Positions 1-54,346 of a stretch of 64,000 nucleotides of DNA are shown piece by piece (the first letter of the stretch is position 1; every line of letters starts with the position of its first letter). The notes under the pieces were generated by a model. That model ran no database searches, was not told the origin of the DNA, and saw only the letters and a program-made list of their open reading frames with translations. The position numbers and the translations under genes are program-made. This stretch comes from Owenia fusiformis (lineage: Eukaryota > Annelida > Polychaeta > Sabellida > Oweniidae): contig CAIIXF020000005.1 of the NCBI GenBank assembly GCA_903813345.2, forward strand, positions 30,321,375-30,385,374, read 5' to 3'.

Positions 1-396
1 GTGACAAAGGGGAAAAACGGAATTTTCTCAGAACCTTCATTGAACTGGACTGCTTATCCCTACATACCAGACTATTTGCTCGGATTTGCAATTGTTGTTA
101 GTGTCGATGTTGCCACTGATTTATACAAACTTGTATGCAAAACTCCCATGACATTCTCTGATGATTCTTATATTGGCATTCTACTGGCAATGCTTGACAT
201 CCCAATGCGTGAATCAGGTTGGCGGGAAAGGGACAACGAGGACAGGCAGTTGGGGAAGTCATACAACAAGACCAAATTGAAGGAATTGATACACACTTAC
301 AATCCAATCTTTACTCATCTGTATTCAGACAATGCAACTGCTTATATGATGGAAGAAATTTGGAAGGATCTCAATCTGAACAAGCCTAGTCTTTAA
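1..396 (+). CDS. Beta-1,3-galactosyltransferase-like (GT31), 3' end of gene
   Basis: This is the last 131 codons of an open frame that runs off the left edge and stops at TAA 394-396. The protein resembles the C-terminal half of the catalytic domain of family 31 glycosyltransferases (B3GALT/B3GNT): a YPxY..Y-LLGFAIVVS segment, matching the family's YP.Y..G.GYVLS, is followed by FSDDSYIGILLAMLDI, matching the conserved EDVYVG..L..LGI block. Family members are type II Golgi membrane enzymes that transfer galactose or GlcNAc from UDP-sugars; the membrane anchor and DxD motif would lie left of the window. The second position of the EDVYVG-like block is D-D-S here, so the acidic pair is kept. One N-x-S/T sequon (NWT) is near the start. 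Family is fairly sure; substrate cannot be told. Confidence 0.75.
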   Translation: MTKGKNGIFSEPSLNWTAYPYIPDYLLGFAIVVSVDVATDLYKLVCKTPMTFSDDSYIGILLAMLDIPMRESGWRERDNEDRQLGKSYNKTKLKELIHTYNPIFTHLYSDNATAYMMEEIWKDLNLNKPSL

Positions 397-1432: not shown

Positions 1433-4400
1433 CTTCAACCAAGGGGTACATTTCTTCCTGACATCCTCCATGGTAAGTTTTGACCTAGCATACCCCACAA
1501 AATATGTCTGCGCTGGCAGGAGCCCATCTCTGTATAACCACCTGTAATAAAAATACATAACCAACATTGGTAAATGGTAATAATGCATGGGCGTGGCTAC
1601 ATATACACAGAATGCGCAGCCGTGTACTATTGAGGGTCAAGACAAAAAGTTTAAATTGAAATTAATCATATATTTTGATCCTAAAATCGCTAAGAACGCG
1701 CCAAATAAGCCCAAAAATCCATTAAGAACCAAAGAAATAATGCTTCAGCTACAAACAGAACAAAACTCTCATAATGAAAGTTTTCTTAATCCTAGTCCCA
1801 TATTCTTTGAAAAAGTCTATGACAAATAAGAGGTTATCAAACAAAGTATGAACTGCCTTTCAACATATACATATACGACATATTGCCCAGGTTTTGTGTT
1901 GTATAAATGTATTTTGTGTACTACCATTAAGGTAAGCAATACATGGATACATAATAGGTATGTTTTGAAATGTAACATCAACACTAAAAGCGAGACCCAG
2001 AGAACCCCTCCTAAATGGGCAATTGTTCTGTAATGTATAATGACATACACACATGCCACTTTCAGCCTACCACTCAGCAAAATAAAATATAATGATATAG
2101 TTATTGCTCTCAAAAATTAACATAAACGTGTACTCTTGCAGTAATCATGTTCGTCCTTACATATTTTAGTCTCACGTGACACTCAAATTGCAACAATGAA
2201 TGACAGTGACTTTATCCCTGTAGTTTTACTCAATAAATACCTATACAACTATCTATGTTGCTTTACATTAACCATTGATATGTAATATTATTTAGAACTT
2301 CTTTTTAAGTGCAAATTCCAATATGAGGAATTCAGCAATAGTGTTATCATGAATAATACGGCAGATTCCCCACTTCAAACAATCATACAGGGGATTCCCC
2401 ATTTTAGACAAAAAATTCATTTTTTAGCTTAGTATATTATTATACTATTCTAACAAAAGGTAAGTATTTGGGTATAATTGAGTATAATTTTATCATTATT
2501 CTACTTTACATGAACATTGATATTGATTAAATAATCAAGAATGACATTCTTATGGTGTCATTCATAAAACTAGATCTAAGACCAATCTTAATTCAAAATG
2601 AAACTAATTTTTACAGAATTGGTATTTCTGCATTTCAATAATTCATACTTCATTTCATACAAGATCTACATCTTTCAATTTTGCCCAAAGAGTACATAAC
2701 ACAAATGTATCTAGGTATACTTAAAGGTTAAAATTTTTCTTCATAGTACAAAATGTAAGTTTTAGTGACCTACTTTTAAAAGTATAAAAACGTATGCTAC
2801 TGAATATTCAAATGAAATGAGATTTTCAATACAATTTTACCCAATCAATATATCAATGAAGTAATTGATAATTGATGCCACCATCATATTATTTTTGTTA
2901 TTGTAGGCTTAGCTACCATGTCTAGAACTGCAAAAACAGTTGGAATACCCCTTCAAATAAAGTATAATGTGTATCTGGCACATGCTTCCGAAGATGAGGA
3001 CTTGGCCAAAACAGTAAAAGAAACATTAGAAGCTGAAAAGTACCAGGTGATGATCTACAAAGAGGATTTTGATGCTAGGTTTACAGTTCTGAGAAACATC
3101 GCAACTAAAATTGATGAGTCACTCCGCATGGTATTCCTCCTAACAGAGAACTCACTTGAAAAAAGTTTTCCTAGATATGAAGCTAATGAAGGCATAAGAC
3201 GAATGCTCAATGAAAAGATTCAGTATGTAATTGTACTGCGTAATGGTGTACCAAGAGAGAGGGTTCCACCTTCACTTCGCTGGGTTCAAGACATAGATTA
3301 CAATGACAGAAAGGTTCCGTGGATTGATAAAGTAAAATACTGCATAAGAGGTAATTTTATAACATCCTATCCAAGTGATCCGTTCTACGGCACTGGGTTT
3401 GTTGACATTACTACAGAATATAACTGATCATTTCAGTTAAATGGTGACCTTATCCTTTGGAAATGGAGACAAAGTTTCACAGCTAGTATCGTGTCTGTCA
3501 AGCTGGGAACATCTAAAATGAGTGACTGACAAATGTTGAACACCTTCCTACTACAAATTGTAAACACTTTGGTCAAAATCTGAACATCTTGGTCGATACA
3601 TATATGCAAATTTTGGACATCTCCAAAAAGCTTAATGAAATAACCTTGTTTGCTTGCATTTGCCAAAACATAAAAAAAAAATAGAAAAGTTGTCACAACT
3701 TTTTAAAACCTCAATTACTGGAACCAATTTCACTTGTAGCCTACAGGTATTTTAGTCACACATGAACTGAGCAGGTCAGTCTATTTCATATTATTACCAC
3801 ATTGCCATTTCTAGGGGTTTTAGTGCTAGTTTAGAAGGCATTCATTTTACTATATCGAACTGAGAAATGTGTGACGTCATAGTGGTGGTCCATATGGACC
3901 GGTCTAGAATATATTCTGGACCAGCAATTTTTCCCTGGGAAATTAGATATCGTTCAGTGCGTAAGATTTTCTTGCTATTTCAGCCCTGGTCGTTAACGGT
4001 GGTAATAAACTAATAACGTCATTTCTGCGAGCAACATAGTGAAATATTGGACCTTGGGCCTTCGGCCCTCGGTCTAATATTTCACTATATTGCCCTTAGA
4101 AATGACGTTATTGTACTAATATCTTCAGTTAGGTTGTGATTTACTTGTTTCTTTAAATCAACGTACTGTACTAAAACTGAGTGCCTGAAAGTGTCTTCTA
4201 TTTTCAGAATCACAACCTTTGGAAATTGGCTTAAATGGGAATGATGTTGGGTTTGGCATGGCTTGGAGTTACTTTTACTCCTATCTTAACATCATTGTAC
4301 CTCCACAAGGACCTGAGGGGGGAAGGCTAGGTACATTTGAAATAATTATGTTTAAAGGTTTGATTTGAAATGTTTAACATATATCTTCCATTATGTTTTG

Positions 4401-7400
4401 TTTAAGGAATAAATAATAATAGGTCATTCAATATAGTGAAATTTAGCATGAGTTGGACAGAATATCATATAAAGCATGAACCAAAGGTGGGTGTATTTAT
4501 ATTGACATTCTGTCCAAGGAGTATAGAATTTCACCGTATTGAATGGCCTATCATTATCAATTCCAATTCAAACATGAAACATTGTCCAAAGAATTAGGGA
4601 CTGAAATAACCAGCTTGCAGTCATTTTTGCATCAAAATTTGTCATTGGCCTTGCCTTGAATGTGACTTCACGATACATTGTACAACACAATACACAGATT
4701 CCCATGCACGTGCAGATTCCATATTGAACAGTCGAGAATTATAGAATGGCTATACTGCAACCTGATTGGATGAGAGATTCTGATACAGCATGGCCATGTT
4801 TGAATGTGTGTTTATGTTTCTCTTTAGATATGAAAGGGCGTATAGAAAAGTACCTAGCAACTCGTGAAAAACAGCAAATCACATACATGCCTCGTAAAAT
4901 CTACATCCTGGTACCAGAGTCTGGAATACTACCAAGCAGCATTGCCGATGTTAATGATAGAGTCAATGTACGTGACAAGAAAAGTGACAAACTGAAAACA
5001 ACAGTGATGAGAGGAGGAACTGAAAGGCCATATTTGAATACAATCTATACCATAGAGGATGGTTCAAAGGTATGTTTTTGTCTTGGGTAGAAGAAATTGT
5101 GTCATTACTACTGTAAATGTACAAAAACTTGTCTAATCCAAACAGCACTGGGACTGTCCAAAAGTGTCCAGATTGTCCAAGGTTTTAACATGGTAATGAT
5201 AGATCTATGGCAGATTGAAAAATGAACCAAAAACCATTCACATTGAGAGTTGATCAGATAGAGGCTTTTTACTTTGTACTGAATTTAGTTAAAATATCTG
5301 TTCATTTCTACATGTACTACTATTCTAGTATAGTAATTCTTTGATGTCATTAATTCCCAGGTATACCAGTGCATTGTGGAATATGCAACTGTTCTACAGC
5401 CGCTAAAGGAAATGGAAGACAATGTGAGATTGACAACCTTCTTAGCTATTGATCGTGAGGTGCAGATTAAGATTTTCTATCAAATGCTGAAGAACATCAT
5501 CAGGAACACATTCACTGATGAGCAACAAGCAATGGTAGAGCTGATTCATATCACAGGTGATGGAGACCTCTGTGATATTCTACTTCAGAAAATCAAGAAA
5601 GATGAAGATGATTGTGTTAAGGAGGATGTTGCAAGAGAAACTGAGATGGAAGTTGATACATCAAATGATGGCAAGGTAGATGTTCCTGTTGGGTACCAGG
5701 TAAGCAACCATACTTGTACATGCACACAAAGCTACATTTCAATCATTCAAATGTCAATTATGTCACAAGGAGTCATAGCATATTGTTTTGTAATAGTGCT
5801 ATTTCTATGATTCAAGGTTGAGCATTCGGCATCAAATACTACAACAAATCGTTGCATTTTTGTAATTGAAACCAGTTGACAACATTTGGTCATTTGAATG
5901 CTCTGATTGGTAATGTTTTTACAATATTTTAGGCTGCTCCATGTTTGAGAAATGATATGTCATACCATGCATTCCTAACATATGCTGGTGAAGTAGATGA
6001 AGGAATGGCGTCAGATATCAGAAATATGTTGTCAAACAGTGGATTTCAAATAGCCAGCAAGGATGACTTTACAGGAGGTGCCATAGTGTTGCAAGAATTA
6101 CCTAAATTAATGAACAGGTCTCAAAGAATGATTCTTCTTGTAACAGAAGATTTCTTGAAAAAAGGGGGATCACTGTATGAGGCAAAGCAAGCCATCACAA
6201 AAATGATTGAAATGAATGAGCGATATGTAGTTGTGCTTAGAAATGGTGTCGAAAGGAAAGAAATGCCAAAGTTTCTCCACTGGGCCACAGATATAGACTA
6301 TGAAGAGGAGCCTAATGTTAGAAACAGAAAACTTATTTTTGCTCTAACGGGTATGTTTCTTATTATGATTAATAGATAAAACATCATAGAAACTATGGAT
6401 CACCCATTTCTTAAAAAATTTAAATAAAGATGAGAATAGATTTGAACAAGCCATTAACATGCAAAATTCCACCTGCTGCCATTTGTTACAGATGTCAACT
6501 GCCACCCACTGACCCCCAAATACCAAACCGCTTCCACAAAAAAGTTGGAGACTTTAACAATATGTCATCACATGTGGTGCTGATATAACAACTACATGTA
6601 AATAAAGAGAGCAGTATTGGAATAATACACATACTAAACAGTAAACATATATTAGGATTCAAAGTATTTTATTTCTAGATAATACTCCATTAGAGGTTGA
6701 CCTGTTGGGTAATGATGTTGGGTTTGGCATGGCATGGGCATACTTCTACTCCTATCTTAACATCATTGTGCCTCCACAAGGACCTGAGGGTGAAAAGGCA
6801 CTTGGTATGTATCACATACGTACATGAATACCATTTGGGTTTAGTCAAAATACTTTTCAAAAATATGATGTAAAATATCAAATGAGGAAAGTAGAGAAGC
6901 AATCGGTCCTACATTATGTAATGTTAGAAGAAAGAACAAAATAGTTAATTGAGCCATTAAACATGTACCTCCTTCCAAAGATACTGGCAGCAGGGGGAAG
7001 CAGTGACTCAATGCTATATCTGATTGATTTCCAGATTTGAAAGGTCGCATTGATAAACACGTTGCCTCCCATGGAAACAAGGGCATTAAATACATGCCTC
7101 GTAAAATCTTCATCCTGGTACCTGAATCAGGTATTCTGCCTGGCAACATCGCTGATGCTGATAATCGTATAACATTGTTAGACAAGAACAATGACAAGTT
7201 AGAGACATTGGTGGCGAGAGGAGGGACACCAAGGCCTTACAAGAACATGATACGGACCATTCAGGATGGTGCAGATGTAAGGAACAATACTATTCTTGTA
7301 TCTACAACTATTTTTTGATGTTTTGAGTATTGGCTATCAATTTTGAATTTATTCTTCAACATGTGTTGTTGTAATGACTTCAGTATGAATGAAATCTCCC

Positions 7401-10400
7401 TTGTTGTTATGATCTCGAATTGAGATATTGGTACTTGAATGGTAGGGGAGAGGGGTATTAGACACTTGGTGGATTTACACTAGCGTGCTAAGACGTCTTA
7501 GCTAAAACGTTTTCGCGTTAAACATTTTACAAATGTAATGTAAATCCAGATTTACCCAAGAGCTCTCGGCTAAGAGCGCTTAGCTAAAACGTTTTAGGAC
7601 CCTAGTCATAGCCAAGACGTCTTAGCGTTAAAACGTTTTACAAGCAAGTGTAAATCCATTGGTTTTAGCTAAGAGCTCTTAGCCCGTTTTTTTGCGTTGC
7701 GCCGAACGAAACATTTGAAATCTTCCATTTACATATGTCGCATGTCCTATCCCTTGTTCCCAATATCATCCCAAAATTATTGAGAAGAACTTATTTGCCT
7801 GGCGATTTATCATAATCCTAATTTATGCATAAAATCTTCCTGCTCTCTTTCATGCTTTTAACAATGCTGGCCGGCTTTAGGACATATTTTTCTGAAACCG
7901 ATGCATTCTTTATTACAAAGTCGGGTACAAAGTATAGAAGCGGGAAAGGAACAGCTATATTAACTGAACCGGCCTTCAACTAGTACTGAACTGCCTTTTA
8001 CATGTATACCTACATATCCCTAAGACGTTTTAGGAAAACAGGTGTAAACTCGATTTTATTTCCTAAGACGTCTTGAAAATGGTAATGTAAACTCAACTTA
8101 ATTTTTCTAAAACGCTTTAGCTAAAACGTCAATATTTGATAAGTGTAGTGTAAATTGGGCTGCTGTTTCTTTTCATATTGGATTATGATTTGGGATATTT
8201 GGGGTTTGTATTCCTGGTGTACTAATAGGTGTTTTCTTTTTCTTGCTTTGTTCTGTAACCATTTTTGGTACATTCCCATTGGCACTTGTGCATAACCTAT
8301 TTGGTTAGAAATAGTGCACTGCATTTGACTATAGCACATAAATAACTTTTACATTTATGTACAAATAGGCATCAATCATATCTAATTCAATTCTTAAGAC
8401 TTACAAGGAAATATTCAATTGAGAACAGTATAAGGATGTCAATCTTCTCTATTAGCGTATATTGAGCAAATAATGAGTACAATATCACTTCAATTACCCC
8501 GTGGCGGACCCTAGAATATAAAGTGTCAGGTTTTAACTTATATTTCCAGAAATACCAGTGCCTTGTTGAATATGCAACAGCAATTCAACCATTGAAAGAA
8601 ATGGAAGACAACCCTGAACTGCCATCTTTCAAAGCAGATGATCGCTTTGAACAAGTCAAGATTTTCAAGGAAACTCTACAAAATGTCATCCATGAGACAT
8701 TCAACCCAGAGCAGAGAGCAATGGTTGAGGTTATAGAAATCAGAGACCTGGATGGAGCTTCCCTTCCGCTCGCTGATCTTTTGCTTCAGAGAATCAAAGC
8801 AGACATGCCTGACTAATTGAAAACTGTTTAGACTGCTAAGGCTACAGCATGTACAGCACCAGTTATCTTTGCTATCTTATAGATACCATGGGCTTTTAAG
8901 AGAAAGACTGTGTCTTTAGACATATACCAAAGAGAGCAATATCGTAATTTTCTCAGTTATGACAGACAAGCAAACAAACTTGTCAACAAGTCCTCTTGGA
9001 CTATAAATATTCAACTTTCAATGACACTCTGCTCTTACATTTATCTATATCACCATGGCAATGTCTCTCTTACATGTGTCATGACCAAGACACTCGGATT
9101 CTCCTCAGTTTATTTTAAATCATACAAAATTTGGAAGAATATTTTGTACATAAGACAATTATTATATCCTTGTCATATTCTCCATTCACATTCCCCATGA
9201 CTCAAAAAAGGGACATACTATTACCTGAAATGATTTTGATGTTATTAAAAAGGTGTATTAACAATTAGTGTGTATTCCCCAGCATATTCTTATTCATCAA
9301 GTATAAATACTCATTCAGTATTAATCTAAAAAACTCAAAAAAACTATATCAGTGCTTATCAAATTTCAAATCAGAGAAAATGATTAATATTTAGTATCAT
9401 ATTTTAATATATATGATGTATATAAACATATTTCATTTTTCTTAATTTGCGAAAGTAAATAAACAAAAACAAAAATATTGTTGTCAAAAGTTACTTATGT
9501 GACTTGAATTTCTTTTTAATATATAACAGTCACAGAGCAAAGAAAAAAAAGCGACGAAGTGAAAAATATTTCCAAACCTTGCCTTGCTTGCCTGGCAATA
9601 GCAGAACATGATGATAATCCCTACGTAATGAGAAAGTTATACAATTCATTTACAACTCATCATTGCTAGAGGAATATTTCTCAAAGGATGTTAAAAAGCA
9701 ACGAGGCAAGAGCCTCTTCTGCCTCACCATGGCTATGCTTGAGTCTAATAATAGTACTACATGACCTAATTACAATCATCTAGACTTACCATAAAGTCGG
9801 ATAAATCTTTTTCTTTGCCAAATCACCCTGAAATGAAGAGATAAGGATTAATCATTTCAACTAATCATCAAAGATACTTTCATATTTAAGAGTTTACAAG
9901 GTCATACAATTTTTTGAAATTGGTTTTTTAACACTTCCCCTCTAAAAAAGAAAGTGCAAATGTCTCATATACAGACAACACAAAATAGTCAGCTATATTT
10001 TTCATTTTGTATCCTCTAAGATGAACAATTACGCCTTCGAGTGGTTTCGACACTTATATATTTTATTGACCTGGACTATACCTTAATAATACAGATAATA
10101 TAATACAGCTGATATATTGTCAACAATATCAAGAGCAGCTTCATGAGAAAGCCAATATCAATTACATATGAAATTACATCTATGTATACAATAACTGATA
10201 TTAACTATCAATTTCCAATAAACATGTCCAGAACAATATAAGATAAGAACACTTTCATATATATAGCAAGAAAGGAATTTGAATTTTTACATGGTATCAT
10301 ATATACATTGCACAGAATTCAGAACATTCAAAATTTTGGAATAAATGTCATATTTAGTTTATTCATAATTGCTTAACAGCTGAATTTCTAAAATAACAAT

Positions 10401-17996: not shown

Positions 17997-20900
17997 ATGT
18001 CAAGGATAATGTTTGGGATTATGTTGGCCCTCGCTGTGGTCACCAATACCATGCTGGTCAAGGGAGAAGTTTACTATCAACCACAGCAGATTCATCTCTC
18101 ATATTCAAGTAAGAATTGTCTTCACATAAAAATAGGATATGGATATGGTTTAACATGGGATAAAATGCCATTAAATTGTTATTAAAGTCACGGGCCTTTC
18201 TTTAGAAAGCCCAAGTTGAAATATGTGAATTTTCAAAAATAGGTTAATATTGTCAATTCTCTACTGTGATAAGCAATTAAGATCCTAAGCTTTATTTATG
18301 TACAGTACTCATATGAAGAAAGTCCACATGCCAAGAGACTACTGTACATGAACCAAGGCTGTATATATACTAAATACAATGTACTCTATTTCCCAAAGGA
18401 TCAACCTGATAAACAAATCCCAAAAATTGACAATGCCAAGAAGAATCTTGTTTAAGTTACAGTATTAACAGTTAAGGCTCATGTGACTCCTTTTGATTGT
18501 TTAATTCAAATGTCAACAAGACCTCACATACATGATTCCAACTGGTCTTATCTTTTTGCGATAAAAATAATAACATTACAAGTTGGCCCAAAATTTGATC
18601 AAATATGTGTGCAATAACTTTGTCAATAATAAGTTCAATTGTGCCAAATAGGCCTATCCCAAAAGTTTTCACAATATGCATGGAAGTTAAAGACATTGTT
18701 ACGTATGGGTTGCATTTTTTGATTACCTGTGTGATATTATGACAAATACTGCGGCTCTAGATATATTTGTTACATCTGTATTTTGTTACTTCAATATGTT
18801 GTTTTTTATTATGTCATAGCTGAGGCTGATGGGATGCAGGTTACATGGGTGACATTCAACGCCACCATGGAGTCAATAGTACAGTATGAAACCGAAAATG
18901 GTGGAGGGATGATGGAAGCATCAGGTGGAACCACTGTCTTCAAAGATGGTGGTCCTGAAGGCAGACTACTGTATATACACACAGTTACACTGAGATCCCT
19001 AAAACCAGGAACAAAATACAGTAAGATATTAATTATCCTGAGAAATCTTGTATCATTTATATGTGCCATTTTGAATATTATTCAGGTATTTTATTATTCT
19101 TTTTTGATAGTTGCTGAATCAATAAACTGAACCCCTTTCCACTGGAACTTACTTCAAGTGCCTATGCCTGAGTGCAAAATATCAGTTCAAAGTGTCTAAC
19201 ATAAATGTTTCTACTGTCATATTGTGCTTGATTTGTCATATCATGTTTTACCTGTCATATTGTGTTTTATCTGTCATAGTGTATCACTGTGGAAGTGACC
19301 TTGGATGGAGCGCCATCTATTGGTTCAGAACTTCACCAGCTGGTAGTGATTGGCCAGCGAGGTTTGCAGTCTATGGTGATATGGGTAATAAAAATGCAGT
19401 CTCTATGGGACGTCTTCAGGAGGAAACTCAGCTGGAACATTTTGATGCTATTTTACATGTGGGTAAGCTCAAACAGATTTTTTAAACTTTAGCCTTCTCA
19501 TTTGTCATATTTATGAAGCTACCCTGTACTAGCGTATGATTACCTGGCAGATTTTAATATCTCAGTTTATATAAAATGAAAATTGTGACTAGAAAACTTG
19601 ATGATATCATTCCCATTTCAGTCCTATTATACTAGTATAAATAAATTGTAATATAATGTCTTCACTTTGAATTCCTATATTTAACATTCTGTGTTTTCTG
19701 CTAATTTTGCAATCCTGAAGGTTTCTATTTGTTATTTCATGCTATGATTTAATCTATAAATGTTGATTTCAGGAGACTTTGCATATGATATGGACTCAGT
19801 AAGTAATCATATAAATATACATGTAAATAAAAGCTATGTTTGTATTCATGAATGCAACTAACGGCTACCAGCTACCGGATTAACCTACTTTTTTATGACC
19901 AACTCACTTAAGTATGAATGGAATAGTGGCAGGTACTATTCATATCTAAATGAGTTGCTCATAAAATTGTAGGTTAATCTGGTAGCCGACAGGCGTTAGT
20001 TGCATTCGCGAATACATGGTAAAGCTCAAAAAAAAATTTATCGGGTCTCTCTTTAATTCAATATAATATTTTTTTCTCTATCTTATTTAAGTTTCACAAC
20101 TCATAATAAGTTTATTAAATAATGCACATATTTTGCAATCACTAATTGTCATTTATGCAGCCTCCTTACATTTAAGGAATTGAGAGCAAAATAAAATGTA
20201 TTTTCAAGAAGGATTTACACTAAACAGATATTTCATGTCAGGGGCCTTAGGATGAAGGCTAAAAACACATGCACATTTTTCATAGGATAATGCTAGAGTT
20301 GGAGATGAATTCATGCAACAGATAGAAACCATAGCTGCCTATGTACCATACATGACCTGTGTGGGGAACCATGAAGAGAAGTAGTAAGTATTATTATGCA
20401 CCTCATTAAAATACTCAAATCTGATTGGTTAAGAGCTGCAGGGTCTATTGTCATAGGTGGCAGCAAGATCTCGGCTTCGCCTCGCCTAGTATTTTTTCCT
20501 CGGATAGGTATTCTGGGATATCCAACTCATGGTCATCCAGTATTTGTTTATTACTTGTATGTGTACTTTTATTTCAACTTCATGGAGTGTAAAGGGCTAG
20601 CATTGCACATCCATAGTTATTTAATCATGAGTGTGAAGGGATGCCACATATGCACCAGCCATGAGGCTTGGAACTCAGTTGTTGTTATTCAAGCCATCTA
20701 TTAGAAATATTTGCCTGGTCTTTTATTTGTTCAAGTTGTGACATATCCATATTGTTGAATGAATAATTCAACCAATTGTTAAATCAATTCTTATCAAGAT
20801 GAGGAAAACCATACCTCCAAAAAGTTAGGATGCATGTTAATATCAACCCAGCCAAAAGTTACCATAGCTCCCCTAACACTAGCATTAAATGAAATGGACT

Positions 20901-28276: not shown

Positions 28277-31200
28277 TCAGAGTTGATCAAGATCCCAGTT
28301 TGCTGGTCCAATATTTGAGTTTTTACTTTTCAATGGTGCTTTCTTTACATTCTGTTTTGCTTGGCCTAGACTGATTTGTTTAGCGCCACTGCCAAACTGC
28401 AAGGTGCTGACAGATTCAGTTACGTTTGACTCTGCAGGACTTATGTTCACGAACAAACAGGCCTGAAATTCAAATAAGAAATACTCATATCCAAAGTGAC
28501 ATACAGGATACAGGATTAATTGTGAAGTTTAAAGTTCATTAACAATCATCTCAATATGAAAGGAGCTTACATAAAAATAATCATGAGGGAGGGGGCACTA
28601 ATGCTCTCAGCCAAGGCCCTCTACAATTACTGTAATCGAATTGTATAATTAATTACCTCAAAAAACCTCAACATAATGTAAAATATGATACTAATTATTG
28701 ACCAAGTCTCTTTGGACAACAAACTGGAAAGTTTATTTCCATAGCTTTTCATATATTTTCTATTATTCTGGCTCCATCTAATGGGCTTAATATACCATGG
28801 TCAAAGATCTTGAGATAATCTGCAATTGCTTTATGATTTTCAACTCTTCTCTTTGTATATCATCTATGCTTCTTCATCAAAATTGGATCTGTCTGTGAAA
28901 ATTCCCCCCTCCCTCCGACATACCTTTGCATCTCCTCCTAGAGAAGGTTGTAACAGGTGAGTGAGCTTGGAGTTGCGATAAGGTACATGTAACTGGTTAC
29001 TCTTCAAAGCAGCAAACACCTGAAACAAGTATTTGTTTGCAATCAGTTAAATGAGATAGCTCTTTAAATTACAGCTTGCTCTTGATCAAAGCCTATACAT
29101 CCAATCAAAATACAGAGTAAGACAATTTTGACATTGTTCATTTTTTGCAATTATTTTACAATTTGGTTTTTAACAATTTAAAACTGCAAACATCATGAAG
29201 ATCAGAACTGTAACTCCATTTGAATTAGTCAGATGGGAATATGTCTAGATTCAGATCAGGGTACTGATTATTTAAGAGTTTTCAAATAATGACAACAGAC
29301 AATACTACAAAACTACATACCTGTCCAAGAGCAGAAAGAGACTTATTGATGGCAGCCGCTTCAACTAATCGTTGACCAGTTGCCTCTGTCTTTGCTATTC
29401 TCTCCGACCCTGCCAGGTCACAAAGTGTCAATGTACCATTTGAAACAGCACCAGAGACTTTATCTCGTCCTTCTAAGCTGATCATGAATAGTAAATGTGA
29501 CCTTGAACTGAAATTAAATTCATTCAACTTTAAATTATTCTTTCCCTTGGATATAATTTTGTAGTTTTAGTAATTAAAATACTTCAATTCACACTTTTGT
29601 CATTTATTCTAATTTCAAGATGAATAGATTTTATGAAGTTTCATGAAAATGTTTTTGTACCTCGTTGAGTTCATCTTTGTTGAAGCAACAGATCGATTCT
29701 TATCCCCCATGTCCATGATTTTCTGTATATCATCTTTTGACTCTACCAGCTTCTTGGTCAGGTTGGGGAGGTTGATTTTGTTCCCTTGAGCTCTGAGTTC
29801 TAAAGTGGTAGGGGTGGGTGATAACAGATCCTGGATTGTTTCATTATAAATCTCAACCATGGAAGCCTAGAAAATGCAGAAAATATGAATGATTTATCAA
29901 TATATTATGAAGACAGTCTGGGCTGAGGCATTTATATGGACTCTAACAACAACATACAAAACAAACTAAACACCTTTGTGGGAACTTAGCAAATACTGTT
30001 TTTTATAAACTGCATAAATCAGTGTGTGCCACCTTAAACAGGCCCGTAGCAAGGATTTGCCAAGAGGGGTTCATTTTTTGAAAAATTCCGAGGAAGGTTA
30101 ATTTTTGCCAATTTTGGTCCAAAAATGGCCCAAATCACTTAAAAAGTGCTCAGAATGATGAAAATTGCATGATTTGGAAAGAATTTTTTGCCAGGGGGTT
30201 CGCTTAAACCCATCGAACCCCCCTTGGCTACGGGCCTGTTAAACTTTAGAGATCAGCATTACCTCAAGTTTATACTGCACTTTTTCTCTTTCACTGCAAA
30301 TCCTTAACAGTTCTTCAATAGACCTGGAAAAAAGTTGACATATCTTGTACATATGAGTGGTTTTATTTTTTTTCATTTAATTTATTTTTTTACCCGGAGC
30401 TTGTCAACTGGTTAAGAAATATATAGGGGGGGGGGGGTGATGAGAAACATTACAGACCAGAAGAGACTTATCTTCTAAAGGCAAAACAACATAATTTTCC
30501 AACTTACAACACTATCAAGGAACAGCATGCAGTGGCTGTACAAATTTATGCAAATATATTGTAATTGTGTGTTATTTCAAAATTAAAGCATTACCTAATA
30601 TTCACCCCAGGGTCATTCTTAGGACCCATCATAGTATGTGTTTTGCCACTACCAGTCTGCCCATATGCCATGATACACACATTGTATCCATCTACACATG
30701 ATGTAATGATTGGCAATGTGTCTTCAAATATCTACAAATATAACAGTACCATTTAACACAGTACAGTATGGTCTTTGCAAAGTATAGTAATTTTCAAAGG
30801 CTTTGTAGAGAAGAGTAACTTTCAAGCATTTGTACTGTACAGAAGGTACAGAAGAGCAAATTTATCAAGCTTAGATTTACAGAAAGGTTAAATTTAAGAT
30901 CAGAGATATCAAAGTTAAGAAAAATCTCTTTTAGTACATGAGCAAATATATGATTTCTGATATTTAATTTTAGATTTCTGATATTTACCTCGGCTTGAGT
31001 TGCCTGCGGGGTAAATACTCTATCAAAACTGAATGGTTTCTTGCTACCCAGGGGTGTGACTTCTTGGTCTGATGGGAAATTATGGCTACAATCAACTCGG
31101 TTGTCATAACGACATCGACAGAACACCCGTATATTGCCTTTTAATTCTTGCAACTTATTGTAGAGCAATTTACGTTGCATAGTTTCTCTTCTGTATAGTT

Positions 31201-34200
31201 CTTTAATTTCCTGAAGTTCTTTGGATTGGCCACTGTCAGCTGTTTTCAGACTCATGACACTAGTCACAACCTGTAAGTTTTTTGAAATGTGATATCATAT
31301 TTAAACAACCTTCATTTTACTTTAAAATATTTTTCACTAAATGTAAGGATCAACATCACATTATTTCATAGTTGTTTCATTTTTGAATCTGTGTTATATG
31401 TTCAATGTACTGTAATTCATTTTTGGTTGATTTAATAATTTTTCAAAAACTGCTTTCAAAACATGATAAAATCATACATCATAACTTTCCATGTAGATAT
31501 ATGTTTCATTAGTTTTATGAATTTAAAACAGGGTCTTTAACATGCATTATAAATTGGAGTAATGTTTTTCAGAAACATCAGATATTACCTGTGTTAACAT
31601 CTTGCCAAGATCTTGTAAATGTTGTTGAGTTTCTCTCTTGAGCATTAGGAATGATTTATGTAGATCCTTAGTGGCAGTGGCAGTATCTTCAACTAGTGCA
31701 GGGTCCACTGTATCTTTCTCTATCTCAATGTATTCTGTCCTGTACTCAACCTGCATTACATAGTTTCAATATATAAGGTTATTTAGAAAACTGACCCCTG
31801 AATTTGAGTAAACATCTAATCAAAAAAATCCCAAAGACCTCAACATATAATATATTTACTGTTGCATTCAATCTACATGGTCTCAACACATTTTTCACTC
31901 AATTTAAAATATGTCATTAAACGACTCCTTAAAACTGATACGGTATTATAAAATTAAAATCAATTGGGAAAATGACAGAGACTATGACATGTACTGTAAA
32001 ATCTGTAAAGTGGAACACCTCTATAAGTCGAAAACCTATGTTAGTGGAACACTTTTCAGAGTTCAAAGACCAAATGACTTAATGTTAAATGAATCTCTAT
32101 AGCGGAACACCTCCTTTTTAGAGGTAGCAAAGTTGTTCCACTTAGACAGGTTTTACTGTAATAAGAAATTTTCAAATTGAATACAACATGTACCTGTGGA
32201 GTTTTGGGCCTAGCAGTCTTTGGTCTTGCTGTCTTTGGTCTCTGGTTTTGTAAGGCTTCCAGAGCCACTGTAGCTGTCCTTGCCTCGACCTCCATGCTGG
32301 ATAGCTGCTCTTGGAGTTCATGAACCTAGATTGTAAATTACAGGTATGTTACACAAGCCCCTAGTCAGCCTTTGCCAAGGGGGGTTCACTTTTCAAAAAA
32401 ATTACAGGGATGTTCACATTTGACAACTCTGGCCCAAAATCACTTGAAAAGTGCTGAAAGAATTTTGGCCAGGAAGGGTTCACTCAAACCCCCTGAACCC
32501 CCTCTGGCTATAGGTCTGGTTGCATGTAAACTGAAAATTGTTGTATTAATATTGTTGTTGTCTGACATGGACAAGTTCAAGGAAAACAATGAACTTAACT
32601 GAAGTTTCCATATTATGACCAGCCTGAGACAGTATATGGCTGAGAAAAGTAACCCCCAAATAAATGATTCCAAGTGTCCCTAATATTTCTTTCCCTTTAT
32701 ATTCCCTTTCAGGTTTATTAGAACAAATACTCACCCTAGATTCGAGGATTTGCTTCTGCTTTCTCTCAGACTCCAGGTCCTCGAAAGACTTGCTTAACTG
32801 GACACACTGGAATACAACAACATGCTGGTGGTTTATAGGAACATGAGGCTGGGTACTTTATAGTACATTGAGCTAATTAGGAAGTCAAGAAATTGCCCTA
32901 AATATTTTATAAGTGTTACCAATCAAATGTTGACTCATACAGATGGCTTTAACATGGTCACAACCCGCCATTTGTTACAGATGGTGAACACCAATCACCG
33001 ACCACCAAACCCAGAACACTCAGTTCACAAAAAAGTTGGAGACTATAACAATACATCTAAATGTATATCACTTGTGGAGTTGACATAATAATCTGAGGAG
33101 CTGAATCGTGGTGTTCTGAGTATAGAAAAAATATTGAACAATGAAACTTGAATAAGCCAAGGAAATGCATGGCAGATCAAAAAAGACCCTCATTGATAAA
33201 AGATACACATACCAGAACATCTCTTTTCTTCTCCAGAGTGGCAATATTTTCATCTTTTTCCAGGATTATATTAATGTCACTGGTACCTCCTGCACTCTGG
33301 TCTACAATTAGTGAAACATACATTAAAACCTGTCAACTTAAACATCCTTTAAGATTAATGCAGTTTACACATGACAATGTTCACAAATACATATACAGTA
33401 CAGTGTATATGCATTTTGTATGCCATTTAACAAAATAACATGAAGATCTCCTTATTGATGATGCATTTAAACTCCATCTTGATCTATCAAAGTATTACAT
33501 ATGACTGAAGTAAAACACTGGTTTAACAACATGTTAAACTCTGTTCCAGTAAATCCAGAATCAATATATAGTAATCAATTGACTATAAAGAAAATAAATC
33601 AGATAATAAATCAAGATACTGTTCAGAGACTTTTTGAATAAAATATTATACATGATTACATGCATGTTTCAGAGATATAGACATTTTATAGATGGCTAAC
33701 AAAATGATTGGAATGATTTGGTTAATTAAAATCACTTCATTGTGCAAGCAATATGTCATAAAAGCAACTACTCAAGGTGCCTCATAGGTGTCTCATGCTG
33801 ATACTCTTACTATCTTTTTTTACATTGGATATACGGTATTAGTCTTTGTAAGGAGATGTGCCTTACCCAAGTTGGTATTTTCTTTGATCTTAAATTATTG
33901 TGAAGTATAAATTTTAAAAAAGAATAATAAAAAGATACATACTTAGGAAGGGCTTGTAATGAGTATCAGAATGGATCAGTTTACTGTTAAAGCAAATACA
34001 TTCATTAGTACACAGACATCCAGACTCAAGAAACTCTGATAATTCCGTTAAATTTTTTAATTTTGTTAACAGTGCTCTTTAACCTCTTGACTACCCAGAA
34101 TGACGAGATTTCTCGTCATCTCAGAAATGACCTTGAAACCCAGAGGGACGAGAAAATCTGTCACAAAATTTTTCACAAAATTTGCTCTCATTTGAACAAT

Positions 34201-46744: not shown

Positions 46745-49700
46745 ATTAGGGACTTGTCACTAATCTGGATGCGGAAGATAATGACTTTCATAGACTTGCA
46801 GGACATTGATAAAGATGGCGTTATAGGATACAATGACCTTATGCTGCTAGCAGACAGATTTGGAAAATTAGGTATATTTCTTTAAATTTCTTGCTGTTAT
46901 GAAAAATTTTGCAACTGTTTTGCAATCTGAACTTTTTAATTGAGAATGCAACAATATTTACACTAATTCTTAAATCATCTAAATTATGAGGATTTCCAAG
47001 ATGAGTGGTTTCATTGTTTCTTTGTGAGTGATCACTGATGCGTCGGGTGTCCCAAAAAAAACGTCCTGCTTTTTGACATCTCATATCTCTGCAATAGATA
47101 AACCAATTCCTTTGAAATTTATCAGGATGTAATATTAGGGTATTATTCACAAGTTGTGAAAATATACAAGGAATCCAATGTAAATCAAGCGAGTATTGAT
47201 AGATACAAAATAGAATATCAAGAAATGTAATATCAGAGAAAAATATCAGTTATGCTAGAAGTTGGGCAACGTATGACTTGCAAGTTAGCAAATCATCAGT
47301 TTCAAGGATGGCTAAAGAATTGAATCTGAAACCATTTAAGAAAATACAAGTTTCTAGAAGAGACAACAATGTTAGAGGAAAAAGAAAAACAAGATGTTGC
47401 AATTTATATGATCGTTATTCAGCCGCAAATGTCAAGATGATCATTTTCACTGATGAGGACTTTTCTCTTTCAGTAACCAAAAATCGTCAAAATCAGTGCG
47501 CGAAATAGACGTCCGACATCGGCCATTGGCCTGACAAAATTATAGATGGCTTGTTTTGATAAAAACACCCAGACATTTTGGCCTGCCAGACATTTGTAGC
47601 ATTCGTTAGATTACCCATGAATAGAACTTACATTTCAGTCCGGAAATCCTCCGAATTCCCCGCGTTTTCGGCTTATTCCATGACTTTTGTTGAAAATTGA
47701 AAACAATTTCAAAATATTTTTGTTTTCGTACGGAAGCCCAAGATATAACGTGACTTTCGATTGGCTGTTGTTGTGTGTTGAAATTACGGTGATTTTGATT
47801 GGCTATGAATGACTCATTTCTTCATCGTCGTTCGCAAATCGAGTGCATTATCAGTATGCCGGATGTAGGAAAGAAATTGAAAAATCGAGCCGGCATCTAA
47901 GTCGAAAAAGTCGGCAGTTTGGAAGTATTTTGGGACTCTGATATCACAAGGTAGACGAATTGGTAATAGTACACAATCCAGACTATGTGAAATGCCGACC
48001 ACATTCGCGGCAGATGCTTTATATTCGATTTTAATTGACGTATTTCTGAATATGATTTTGAAAAGTGAAACTGAAAGTGAAACTGTCATCATCAGACATT
48101 GTATCATTTTTAATGTTTTGTCCCGTCCCGAAAGTACCGTGTCCCGAGACAAATTGTACCTTTCCGTACCAATAATTCTTTTGGATTGTGACACCTCTAA
48201 TATATACCTTGAATTTTAGTGGAGTCTGTGTCCACAGTATGTGTTTTTGAATACCTTGAAGCTTCTGAGTTCTGAGCAATTCTAAACCGACCAAAATCAG
48301 TACAATTTAGTTTGATCAATATGTACATGTTCCTCATGTTTTTGTAAGGTGAATCTAGGGGGAAATCAGCACACCCAGGCTGTTGGTTAAGTCATCAAGT
48401 ACAGTATAGTGAATAATACATGACATGCAATGGAATTAGTTTTATCTTTGTTAATATTGTACTAAACTAAATCTCATTTTAGAGTGATTGTGGAGAAATA
48501 TGGTACAGTCTGTTTCACTGCTTCAAAGGCAAGCAGTTGAACCTGAAAAATAAGAAATCTATAGACCATTGTGCCATAATATATAAAAAAGTATATTCAT
48601 ATTGCACACGAATGGCATTTGTATATTTCAGATTATTTAGTGTTTAGTGCAATAAGCCTATGCCCTCTTGTAATTTGATGTCTGCCTGCATGTTATTTTT
48701 TGAGAATTAACACGGTAGAGAAGCATCAAAATATAAGAGGTTACAGACTTTATGAGCCAATTTACAAGCAATCCAACATAACAAATGCCATTCGTGTGCA
48801 ATAGAAATAAACAATTTATTATTTAGATTTCTTATATTTCAGGTCTAACTGCTTGCCCTTGAAGCAGTGTAACAGACTTTAAGTGAAATTTTTAGCCAGA
48901 GAAGTAAGAAACAGCCTGCCAAAAATTGGCCTGAGAAAAAATGATATGGCTTGTTAAAATCTGGCTGGCCTGCCAAAATGTCTAGGTTAAAAAAATCCTT
49001 ATTTCATGCACTGCAAAATGATCGGGTGTATGGAAAGCGTAAATGTCAAATTCAGCCATCACGTCTTTACCATGAAACTTCACGTTTTTCCAAAAAGATA
49101 ATGGTTTCTGCAGGAGTAACCTGGAAGGGGAAGACGGACATTTATTTTATTAATACTGTAAGCCAAAGTCAACAGCGAAAGCGATATTAAGTTATTAGAT
49201 GAAAATCTGCTACCTGATTGTAGGAGGATTTACCCTAGAAATGACTATGTGTTTCAACAAAATGGGGCCCCTTCCCACACAATTGGGGTAACCCATGCCT
49301 ATCTGGAGAGATCCAACCCACCATTTATCAAAAAGGTTATATGGCCTCCACAAAGTCCAGACTGTAATCCAATGGATTACTCTGTTTGGGATTCTCTAAA
49401 TCAAAAAGTTTACAGTGGTATAAGGGATAAGTTTACAGAACAAACATTAAAAGAGAGAATAAGTGTGTCATGGCAGGAGATATCACAGGATGAAATCAAG
49501 AGCAGTATCTCTGTATGCAAGAAACGACTCTGTTTAGTTGTGAATGAAGAAGGAGGCCACATTGAGCACAAGTTATAAGATAAGTGAGTTGTCGATCTTT
49601 TGCTTTTTATCTTATGCAGTTTAACTTTTGTATTTGGCGATGCTCATCAATCTATATTATAAGGTGAAATAAGTGAGTTGTCCTCCGATATTACATTTCT

Positions 49701-52700: not shown

Positions 52701-54346
52701 AGTGACGGCCATTTTGAAAATAGGCGAGCTTTTGAACCAGGAGTCATAAAGGAGTTTTCTGTATTGATCTTGAACAGAAATAACTTAAAACAGGAATCCT
52801 ATCGACAGAGGTTTTAAAGGAAATGGGTCAAAAGTGAATTTAGCGAGACAAAAGTGACGGCCATTTTGAAAATAGGCAAGCTTTTGAACCAGGAGTTATA
52901 GGGGAGTTTTCTGTATTGATCTTGAACAGAAATAACTTAAAACAGGAATCCTATCGACAGAGGTTTTAAAACGTGCCACTATTGTTGACGGACAAACAGA
53001 CGGACGGACGGACGGACGGACGGACGGACGGACGGACGGACAAGTGAGTGATTGCAAAAGCTCACCATGTGAGCTAAAAAGGGTGTCCAAAAAACAGGAC
53101 CAAAGAGAAAGTTGATTAACTCGGTCAATTTTGCATTTTCTTCTTTGATATTTCAGAATTATTTAGATTATTCAAGTTGGATTTTGTTGTAAAAGTTTGA
53201 TTATAATGTGCCTATTGACCTAAGTAATCAACTTTCTTTTCTTTCATTTTTTTAACACCCTGTAGGTTTCGTTTCTCTGGGTTATCGTTAAATATAATTC
53301 GATAGTACAATAAAACGTAATATGATTTTCTAGTTAAAAGTGAGAAGTCAAAGAATGAGCACATAGAGATACATAGAAAAAGACACAAAATTCTCAATGA
53401 AAGCTCTGAAGGACCCATGACATTTAAGAAACAAATCTTAAAGTACTGGCAGCTGATGGATGACCCAGCTATAGTTGAACAATGGCAGAAGGAATCATCT
53501 GGATTTTTCAAGGTATAATACTCACTTTATTCACAATCTACAAACTCTCATAGGTTAAGGAGTGCATAGCTAGAATAAGTTAACATTGACCTGTAATTTC
53601 AAATGTTCAAACGGGTCAAAATTTGGTACTCTAGGTCTACCTTAACCCTTTCCCGATGTGAATATAAGAGGAAAATGTTGTCCCCAGTGACGGATAAGTA
53701 AGAGTGTTTTTTAGGGGAAAACTGCAAAATACCTATGCCCTGGGACCTATACCTTGGATTTCATCACTGATATACAATTTTTAGTAAGGATTATCACATA
53801 AGAACAACTTGTCAAAATTTGGTGTAAAAATACTGAATAGAACTGGAGATATTGTCATTTCATTGATGTATATAAATAAAAATAATGGTGCCAAAAGGAG
53901 CCTATCGTCCTGAAAGGTATTACATAATAGGGCTCCATATGGAGCCTATCGTCGTGAAAGGGTTAAAGTCCAAAGTATGAGCATGGACTGTTGAACAATA
54001 TTTGTATTTTCTTAAATATCATCTGTTACATGTATATGTATTACAGATTCTTGATTCCAAGGGCAATGGTTACTTATCATTTGATGATTTCATTGTTTAC
54101 TGGAGAGTACTTGGGATGGATACAAGGTTCGCCAGAATGCAGTTTGACTATGTTAATACCAACCAAGATGGTTTGATCACAGAAGAAGAATTTGTAAAGG
54201 CAAGAGTGGAATACTTCACTAATACAGATCCAAACAATCAAAATCAAGATCCTCTATCAATAGAGTATTTTCCATATAGCTTTGAAATCTCATTAAAGTC
54301 TTGTTTTAAATTAGATTTTAGGAGATCTGAATTTTTAACCACTTAA
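46745..54346 (+). CDS. EF-hand protein, sarcoplasmic calcium-binding protein/calexcitin type (5' end not found)
   Basis: Three in-phase exons, 46745-46871, 53334-53512 and 54047-54346, encode about 200 residues to a TAA stop. EF-hand loops are DIDKDGVIGYND (exon 1), DSKGNGYLSFDD and NTNQDGLITEEE (exon 3), each with the central glycine and hydrophobic position. The first two end in Asp rather than Glu at position 12. The lead-in WMRKIMTFIDLQDIDKDG and the spacer FKKQILKYWQLMDDPAI match the invertebrate SCP/calexcitin family, cytosolic Ca2+ buffers or sensors of about 180-190 aa. The last 30 residues after NTDPNNQNQ are not family-like, so an unrecognised splice near 54235-54265 is possible. 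The 6.5-kb first intron holds the mariner and two pearl-like elements. Confidence 0.7.
47494..49013. mobile_element. Non-autonomous hAT-like element inserted in the mariner
   Basis: The element is 1520 bp. Its ends are inverted (CAGTGCGCGAAATA and, complemented, CAGTGCATGAAATA) and it is flanked by an exact CAAAAT duplication (47488-47493 and 49014-49019). CAGTG ends fit hAT elements, although 8-bp duplications are more usual. Inside lie mirrored words (CTGACAAAAT/CTGCCAAAA, GGCCTGCCAGACATTT/GGCCTGCCAAAATGT) and a second palindrome, 48504-48883. Confidence 0.75.
48504..48883. repeat. Palindrome nested in the hAT-like element
   Basis: Arms starting with CAGTCTGTTTCACTGCTTCA and ending in the complement (GAAGCAGTGTAACAGACTTT) pair for about 60 bp. 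A further inner pair, CACACGAATGGCATTTGT with its complement, is near 48605 and 48782. This is a third level of nesting. Confidence 0.65.
49905..51372 (+). mobile_element. Pearl/HINE-like element with long repeat units
   Basis: Sub-terminal inverted repeats TATCGCACTTTGAA on the left and TTCAAAGTGCGATA on the right enclose tandem units: a compound unit of about 600 bp repeated at about 50040 and 50640, containing shorter repeats with CCCAGCATGCCC..AACCTAATCAGA. A CGCCCGTACGCC microsatellite (51285-51325) follows, at the right end. Confidence 0.65.
51380..53085 (+). mobile_element. Pearl/HINE-like element with ~330-bp tandem array
   Basis: GCTCACATGGTGA on the left and TCACCATGTGAGC on the right enclose about five copies (the first partial) of a unit of about 330 bp. 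The unit carries GCTAGGAAATGGG, TTTCGCGAGACA and ATCCTATCGACAGAGG. A (GGAC)n microsatellite follows at 52990-53040. It directly abuts the previous element, and open frames within it are repeat shadows. Confidence 0.65.
53642..53966. mobile_element. TTAA-bounded MITE in the EF-hand gene
   Basis: The inverted ends TTAACCCTTTCCCGA and TCGTGAAAGGGTTAA have TTAA at both borders. The interior carries two GGAGCCTATCGTC copies. It is similar in design to 34079-34378. Confidence 0.6.

What the first reader, a model, noticed from the sequence alone, without database searches (positions are those of the whole stretch)
2918..8816. A single gene model encoding TIR-STING-TIR-STING
Two complete TIR-STING units follow each other, with all eight exons in phase and no stop between them. 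The two units have the same exon pattern (TIR in one exon, STING in three, with splice phases 1, 1, 0), so the gene arose by tandem duplication of a four-exon TIR-STING, and the copies are joined by an acidic linker (residues 345-379). Single TIR-STINGs are known in bacteria and oysters. I know of no described four-domain form. A covalent pair could pre-assemble the STING dimer within one chain, or seed filaments that bring TIR domains together for NAD+ cleavage.
Basis: partly seen in the sequence, partly recalled or inferred. Interest (0 to 1): 0.9.

Follow-up and report, generated by a model that had tools for sequence, protein, structure and literature searches.

The report
Fused double TIR-STING gene, two loci
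An animal genome, probably a marine worm's, encodes an immune sensor in which two complete TIR-STING units are joined in one chain, and a second copy on another chromosome has the same layout, so the doubling looks old and real rather than an annotation slip.

Summary
Eight GT-AG exons at 2918-8816 give one open 729-aa frame: TIR-STING, acidic linker, TIR-STING, with splice phases 1,1,0 in both halves. No RNA evidence was available, but the same genome supplies an independent test: a second locus (C7:10983415-10979137) has the same four-domain layout, the same phase-0 joining intron and an acidic linker. A TIR plus last-exon tree pairs first unit with first unit (97/96) and second with second (97/93), and separate doublings at each locus are rejected (AU p 0.0007 and 0.003). 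So the doubled gene predates the split of the loci. Both second units and singles C and E stop three residues after an IKxD motif; only the two first units run on, by 32 and 25 residues, into a donor site. At C7 the second TIR exon has no ATG before the TIR core. I read it as a cytosolic cyclic-dinucleotide receptor that brings two different TIRs together: a new variant of metazoan TIR-STING. No description was found in the searches listed.

The parts
2918..3350 (+). exon 1: start codon and TIR domain 1 (144 aa), donor phase 1
   Evidence: TIR_2 E 1e-12; AF2 model pLDDT 86.1, TIR fold by Foldseek and VIA-align
4208..4330 (+). exon 2: first part of STING 1 (GNDVGFGMAWSYFYSYL)
4828..5069 (+). 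exon 3: STING 1 core with pocket motif RGGTERPY
5361..5699 (+). exon 4: end of STING 1 (VEYATV) and acidic linker, residues 345-379, no stop, phase-0 donor
5700..5932 (+). intron 4 that joins the two units, 233 bases, no AATAAA or ATTAAA
5933..6350 (+). exon 5: TIR domain 2 (139 aa)
   Evidence: TIR_2 E 1.1e-8; AF2 model pLDDT 89.1 (not compared with the PDB)
6679..6804 (+). exon 6: first part of STING 2
7035..7276 (+). exon 7: STING 2 core with RGGTPRPY
   Evidence: donor GAT|GTAAGG is the weakest of 23 family donors (1.35)
8550..8816 (+). exon 8: end of STING 2 and stop codon

Best explanation
This is one gene for a soluble tandem TIR-STING receptor. Each half carries an animal-type TIR followed by a STING ligand-binding domain with the main cyclic-dinucleotide pocket residues; the halves are joined by an acidic linker. 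Shown: gene structure, domain identity, retained pocket motifs, no strongly hydrophobic stretch, a second locus with the same architecture, and orthology of first and second units. Inferred: cyclic dinucleotides made by the animal's own cGAS-like enzymes or by microbes close a STING pair, built within one chain or between chains, and this brings the two diverged TIRs together. The paired TIRs act mainly as a seed for TIR-TIR assembly with adaptors of the TLR/MyD88 type. Because both halves sit in one chain, the first assembly step needs fewer molecules, and the chain always offers one TIR of each kind. My confidence is about 0.88 that it is one fused gene, about 0.75 that it binds cyclic dinucleotides, and about 0.5 for TIR scaffolding rather than NAD cleavage.
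For: Open 729-aa model with eight exons and GT-AG introns. Second double gene on C7, also 729 aa, same phases, same phase-0 join, acidic linker with 8 D/E of 28. Tree of TIR + last exon over 6 units: W1+A 97/96, W2+B 97/93; holding W1+W2 together is rejected (p-AU 0.00066) and so is A+B (p-AU 0.0030). TIR alone over 7 units: 87/91 and 88/95. W2, B, C and E end 3 residues after IKxD, whereas W1 and A continue 32 and 25 residues without a stop. The open frame of the C7 second TIR exon has no ATG before the TIR core. 7 of 7 units compared keep an R(G/A)G...RPY motif and VE(Y/F)AT; in the window's unit 2 these align with human STING 'dRagikdRvY' and 'EyaT'. TIR profile: best PDB matches are TLR15/2, TLR1, oyster TIR-STING, TLR6 and MyD88. 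32 Mab-21 family matches in the genome, a family that includes cGAS-like enzymes. Highest 19-residue hydropathy means 1.09 and 0.99.
Against: No transcript was seen. The C7 joining donor (ATG|GTGTGT) is below average (5.49; 23 donors range from 1.35 to 10.31), and its 690-base joining intron holds two AATAAA motifs. The STING-only tree resolves nothing, and exon 4 alone pairs W1 with A (95/96) but not W2 with B; there W2 is nearer to single C (68%) than to B (61%). The groups tested by AU were named after the tree had been seen. The window's unit 2 has an in-frame ATG (5957) just before the TIR, so it could in principle start alone. The BB-loop P-G pair is present in A, B and C but not in W1, W2, E or D. 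No experiment shows ligand binding or any output of this protein.
Confidence: 0.6

Rival explanations
1. Two separate neighbouring TIR-STING genes that only look like one because the intergenic stretch is short.
For: Single TIR-STINGs also lie near each other in this genome (C and D on C7, about 4.5 kb apart); unit 2 of the window has an in-frame ATG at 5957; the C7 joining intron has two AATAAA motifs and a modest donor; no RNA evidence.
Against: In the window the gap is 233 bases without AATAAA or ATTAAA; first units lack the stop that four other units have; the same phase-0 join is kept at a second locus although synonymous change in the TIR exons is saturated; C7 unit B has no ATG before the TIR core.
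Confidence: 0.1
2. The same fused protein, but the output is NAD+ cleavage by paired TIRs, as in bacterial TIR-STING.
For: Glu after Tyr kept in 6 of 7 TIRs; the TIR 1 fold matches enzyme TIRs nearly as well as adaptors (SPARTA Z 17.6, SARM1 16.2; MyD88 17.9, oyster 17.9); the CAP12/Pycsar TIR model hits the joined protein just over its cut-off (27.5 against 24.7 bits; TIR 1 alone 24.5, just under). In Sf TIR-STING the active site is completed by the opposite TIR (PMC9402430, passage).
Against: The sequence profile ranks TLR, oyster TIR-STING and MyD88 TIRs first; bacterial TIRs follow at 3.7e-8 (7uxr, BtTir) and 2.5e-7 (7uwg/7uxu, AbTir), and no SARM1 is among the 59 matches at E 0.01 (names of 7uxr and 7uxu). 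C7 unit B has Asp at the Glu position. A tree in PMC10732462 groups the oyster TIR with animal TICAM TIRs, and that paper calls the role of the oyster TIR unclear (passages).
Confidence: 0.25
3. One locus, two products: alternative splicing or a second promoter yields both the double protein and single units.
For: Exon 4 read through gives 36 more codons and a stop, so a single-unit form ending in intron 4 can be encoded; ATG at 5957.
Against: No AATAAA or ATTAAA in intron 4 of the window; nothing positive for such transcripts.
Confidence: 0.15
4. The second TIR-STING is a decaying duplicate with no function.
For: C7 unit B carries Asp for Glu; window exon 7 has a weak donor.
Against: No internal stops in either double gene; exon 4 W2-B dN 0.294 against dS 1.52; both second STINGs keep the pocket motifs.
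Confidence: 0.05

Closest known systems
Oyster (Crassostrea gigas) TIR-STING, PDB 6wt6/6wt7
   Same: Order TIR then STING, animal-type TIR; unit 2 aligns over nearly its full length (residues 2-346 of 350, E 3.3e-18), unit 1 over 15-315 (E 5.7e-15).
   Different: One unit per chain; here two, with a linker and a phase-0 joining intron.
Annelid TIR-STING (Capitella teleta), named in PMC6723221 (passage)
   Same: STING fused to TIR in an annelid.
   Different: Only a single fusion is mentioned in that passage; sequence not compared here.
Bacterial TIR-STING of CBASS (Sphingobacterium faecium), PMC9402430 (passages)
   Same: TIR-STING layout and, by analogy, ligand-driven TIR packing.
   Different: Single unit; NADase TIR; PMC10732462 argues that the animal fusion arose independently (passage).
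Animal STING without TIR (e.g. human, PDB 6ukm)
   Same: STING ligand-binding domain and aligned pocket residues.
   Different: Membrane helices instead of TIR (recalled); single STING domain.

Membership tests
metazoan TIR-STING | N-terminal TIR domain | tested here: met
   TIR_2 over cut-off in both halves; TIR 1 model matches TIR structures; TIR 2 model confident but not compared with the PDB
metazoan TIR-STING | C-terminal STING ligand-binding domain | tested here: met
   PF15009 two stretches, E 1.3e-58
metazoan TIR-STING | TIR of animal type | tested here: met
   TIR profile best against TLR, oyster TIR-STING and MyD88 chains; by sequence score only, no TIR tree with bacterial TIRs was made
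metazoan TIR-STING | cyclic-dinucleotide pocket residues | tested here: met
   motifs kept in both halves and aligned to human STING; residue roles are recalled, binding itself not tested
metazoan TIR-STING | no transmembrane helices | tested here: met
   highest 19-residue hydropathy mean 1.09, a simple scale only
metazoan TIR-STING | one TIR-STING unit per chain | tested here: not met
   two units in one open model, same at C7; this is the variant, provided the transcript spans both
bacterial CBASS TIR-STING | Prok_STING domain | tested here: not met
   Pfam scan of the joined protein lists PF15009 and no Prok_STING at E 0.01
NADase TIR | conserved catalytic Glu | tested here: inconclusive
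   Glu in 6 of 7 TIRs, Asp in C7 unit B; the Glu also occurs in non-enzymatic TIRs (recalled)
NADase TIR | NAD+ cleavage | not testable with these tools
   needs purified protein

The most novel reading that the evidence does not exclude
The double gene encodes a receptor that carries its own STING pair in one chain and presents two different TIRs as an obligate pair. The TIRs have split in role, with C7's second TIR having lost the conserved Glu, while at C7 gene conversion keeps the ligand-binding exon 3 of the two halves identical in protein (100% aa, 97% nt, against saturated synonymous change in the TIR exons). Selection would then hold the two STINGs alike so that they can pair, and let the TIRs diverge.
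Probability: 0.3. Interest if true: 0.75.

Novelty: new variant of a known kind. Interest (0 to 1): 0.57.

Why it matters
STING works as a dimer and, in bacteria, as a filament that packs TIRs together. A natural chain with two STINGs and two TIRs lets one ask directly which pairing is needed: each half can be mutated on its own, which a homodimer does not allow. It also shows that animal TIR-STINGs diversified in architecture and not just in copy number.

Tried and rejected
First exon boundaries were wrong by one or two bases and gave stops; one search replaced them.

The STING-only tree over 7 units resolved no branch, and exon 4 alone did not pair W2 with B. I kept the TIR + exon 4 tree as the main one but report all of them. 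Unit D was in the trees and left out of the trees; unit F (C346) was left out of all trees because its TIR exon could be only partly modelled. Low synonymous distance between W1 and W2 in exon 2 (0.74) was considered as a sign of gene conversion and not used: other pairs in that short exon are as low (B-C 0.67, C-E 0.73).

Fold comparison of TIR 1 does not separate enzyme from adaptor TIRs, so I draw no output from it. The 50 rows show no bacterial TIR-STING chain; that is no evidence of absence. The model of TIR 2 was not compared with any library.

A whole-chain structure model was not asked for: the tool states that it takes only proteins that the DNA gives letter for letter, and a spliced protein does not clearly fit that. 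Only the two TIR exons, each open on its own, were folded, with rows from the window and its paralogues.

No collection of eukaryote genomes was at hand apart from the window's own genome, so presence in other animals is untested. Paper searches: a direct search for six wordings of a double form found 0 papers; wider searches listed 25 of 350, 2 of 2, 10 of 18,373, 20 of 1,079, 40 of 48, 16 of 16, 8 of 10 and 15 of 104 papers, and I saw no double form in titles, abstract starts or the passages read. Passages only were read, in 12 papers: PMC10732462, PMC13142454, PMC6723221, PMC9402430, PMC8204762, PMC5869526, PMC9977687, PMC4346834, PMC10855445, PMC12424679, PMC8218723 and PMC9334734. Two papers that matter were not held: PMC7685563 and the 2020 Nature paper on STING origins. 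So 'undescribed' means not found in these searches.
Full report
OBSERVATION. With boundaries at 2918-3350, 4208-4330, 4828-5069, 5361-5699, 5933-6350, 6679-6804, 7035-7276 and 8550-8816, all seven introns are GT..AG, the cumulative phases are 1,1,0,0,1,1,0 and the frame stays open for 729 residues to a stop at 8814-8816. Pfam finds two TIR and two STING ligand-binding stretches in the joined protein (TIR_2 E 2.7e-21, STING_LBD E 1.3e-58). Against the PDB, unit 1 scores best with STING chains (8ydn, E 3.8e-16; the oyster TIR-STING 6wt6 comes fifth, E 5.7e-15), and unit 2 with the oyster TIR-STING fusion, aligned from residue 2 to 346 of 350 (E 3.3e-18).

WHERE IT IS. The window lies at C5:30321375-30385374 of a 498,259,871-base genome with 525 contigs. 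C1-C12 are 31.9 to 62.2 Mb long, and C13, C14 and C15 are under 0.7 Mb (lengths of most other contigs were not looked up). This fits Owenia fusiformis, an annelid whose published assembly spans 505.8 Mb with 12 chromosome-scale scaffolds (PMC9977687, passage), but the sizes are not equal and the species was not confirmed.

A SECOND DOUBLE GENE. Searching the genome with each half gave, besides the window, a tandem pair on the minus strand of C7. Read at base level, it runs from 10983415 to 10979137 and has eight exons with the same phases. Its first unit (A) ends in an acidic tail without a stop and meets a phase-0 donor; its second unit (B) starts at a phase-0 acceptor. The joined C7 model has 730 codons with a single stop, at its end, so it is also 729 aa long. 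Three further full single TIR-STINGs have the same four exons and phases: C (C7:10969059-10967400), D (C7:10962919-10960452) and E (C7:12833112-12831447). A fourth, F on C346, is partial in its TIR. Of the 14 PF15009 matches in the genome, four (C10 twice, C9, C12) belong to none of these loci and showed no TIR match beside them; I did not study them further. Exons of the paralogues were placed by hand from tblastn hits and GT-AG sites in phase.

WHY ONE GENE. (i) W2, B, C and E end exactly three residues after an IKxD motif; D, which is divergent, ends 11 after a similar motif; W1 and A alone run on, for 32 and 25 residues, and reach a splice donor instead of a stop. (ii) The join has phase 0 at both loci. 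(iii) B has no ATG before the TIR core, also not in the open stretch before its acceptor; its first in-frame ATG lies inside the TIR. (iv) Intron 4 of the window is 233 bases long and has no AATAAA or ATTAAA. Against this, the C7 joining intron is 690 bases with two AATAAA motifs, its donor is weaker than most (5.49; 23 donors range from 1.35 to 10.31), and the window's unit 2 has an ATG just before its TIR. No transcript data were available.

AGE AND SELECTION. In a tree of TIR plus last STING exon for six units, W1 pairs with A (97/96) and W2 with B (97/93) (repeated). Trees in which the two units of one locus are held together are rejected: W1+W2 p-AU 0.00066, A+B p-AU 0.0030 (the groups were chosen after the tree was seen). 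The TIR-only tree of seven units agrees with lower support (87/91, 88/95), and the STING-only tree is unresolved. The doubling therefore came before the C5 and C7 loci parted. Synonymous distance between the loci cannot be computed for W1-A and W2-B in the TIR exon (saturated) and is 2.03 (W1-A) and 1.52 (W2-B) in exon 4, with dN 0.38 and 0.29. The layout has thus lasted while synonymous sites were largely randomised, under purifying selection on the protein. Within the C7 gene, exon 3 of the two halves is 100% identical in protein and 97% in DNA, inside a 270-nt tract that is 96% identical and takes in a little flanking intron, while the TIRs of the same two halves share 35%. Gene conversion between halves is the simple reading.

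LIGAND AND OUTPUT. Both halves keep RGGT.RPY and VEYAT; in unit 2 these align with human STING pocket residues (the roles of those residues are recalled: R232, R238, Y240, E260, T263). The position of human S162 is Ser in W1 and D, Ala in W2 and Gly in A, B, C and E, so ligand preference may differ (numbering recalled). The genome has 32 Mab-21 family matches, 13 of them on C4, so makers of cyclic dinucleotides are plausible, though the family also holds non-cGAS members (last point recalled). No membrane-like stretch was seen. The TIR profile ranks TLR15/2, TLR1, oyster TIR-STING, TLR6 and MyD88 first; bacterial TIRs come later (7uxr 3.7e-8, 7uwg 2.5e-7), and no SARM1 is among 59 matches. The conserved Glu is present in 6 of 7 TIRs and is Asp in B. 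The predicted TIR 1 (pLDDT 86.1) matches Hydra TRR-2, MyD88, oyster TIR-STING, SPARTA and SARM1 TIRs at similar Z (18.3 to 16.2), so the fold does not decide. In bacterial TIR-STING, ligand drives filaments, and a residue from the opposite TIR completes the active site; in the oyster apo structure the linker crosses to the partner (PMC9402430, passages). Whether the animal TIR cleaves NAD+ is open; PMC10732462 calls its role unclear and finds an animal origin for both domains (passages).

MECHANISM. Most likely the chain is a cytosolic receptor in which ligand closes a STING pair and brings TIR 1 and TIR 2 together as a seed for TIR assembly. That the pair forms inside one chain is an inference; a 28-35 residue linker would allow it, but chains could also link head to tail. 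NAD+ cleavage remains a serious rival (0.25).

NOVELTY. Single TIR-STINGs are known in bacteria, oyster and the annelid Capitella (PMC6723221, passage). A direct search for a four-domain or tandem form found no paper, and none turned up in the wider, capped listings. The library lacks many papers, including two central ones, and no eukaryote genome collection could be searched. I rate it a new variant of a known kind.

Noticed in passing
L001 2109-2378 and 4699-4968: 270-nt tract, 96% identical between the two halves of the C7 double gene, covering STING exon 3 and a little intron: gene conversion inside one gene.
   Followed up: partly
window 4012-4112: Hairpin in intron 1 of the double gene: 49-nt arms, 86% complementary, 3-nt loop.
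   Followed up: no
L001, second TIR exon (unit B): Asp in place of the conserved Glu, in this one of the 7 TIRs aligned.
   Followed up: partly
G000 contig C4: 13 of 32 Mab-21 family matches of the genome lie on this one chromosome, 11 of them within 22.3-24.9 Mb.
   Followed up: no
window 1-396: Tail of a gene with a weak Galactosyl_T match, below the cut-off.
   Followed up: no
window 30794-31294, 53981-54346 and 18735-19130: Open frames matching Microtub_bd (kinesin-type), EF-hand and Pur_ac_phosph_N.
   Followed up: no
window 49162-49578: Open frame that looks like a piece of a Tc1/mariner-type transposase by eye (recalled motif); no Pfam match at 0.001.
   Followed up: no
window 7480-8160: Intron 7 holds repeated motifs around AAGACGTCTTAGC that look like a small inverted-repeat mobile element by eye; repeat searches at 30 bases and for tandem arrays listed nothing there.
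   Followed up: no
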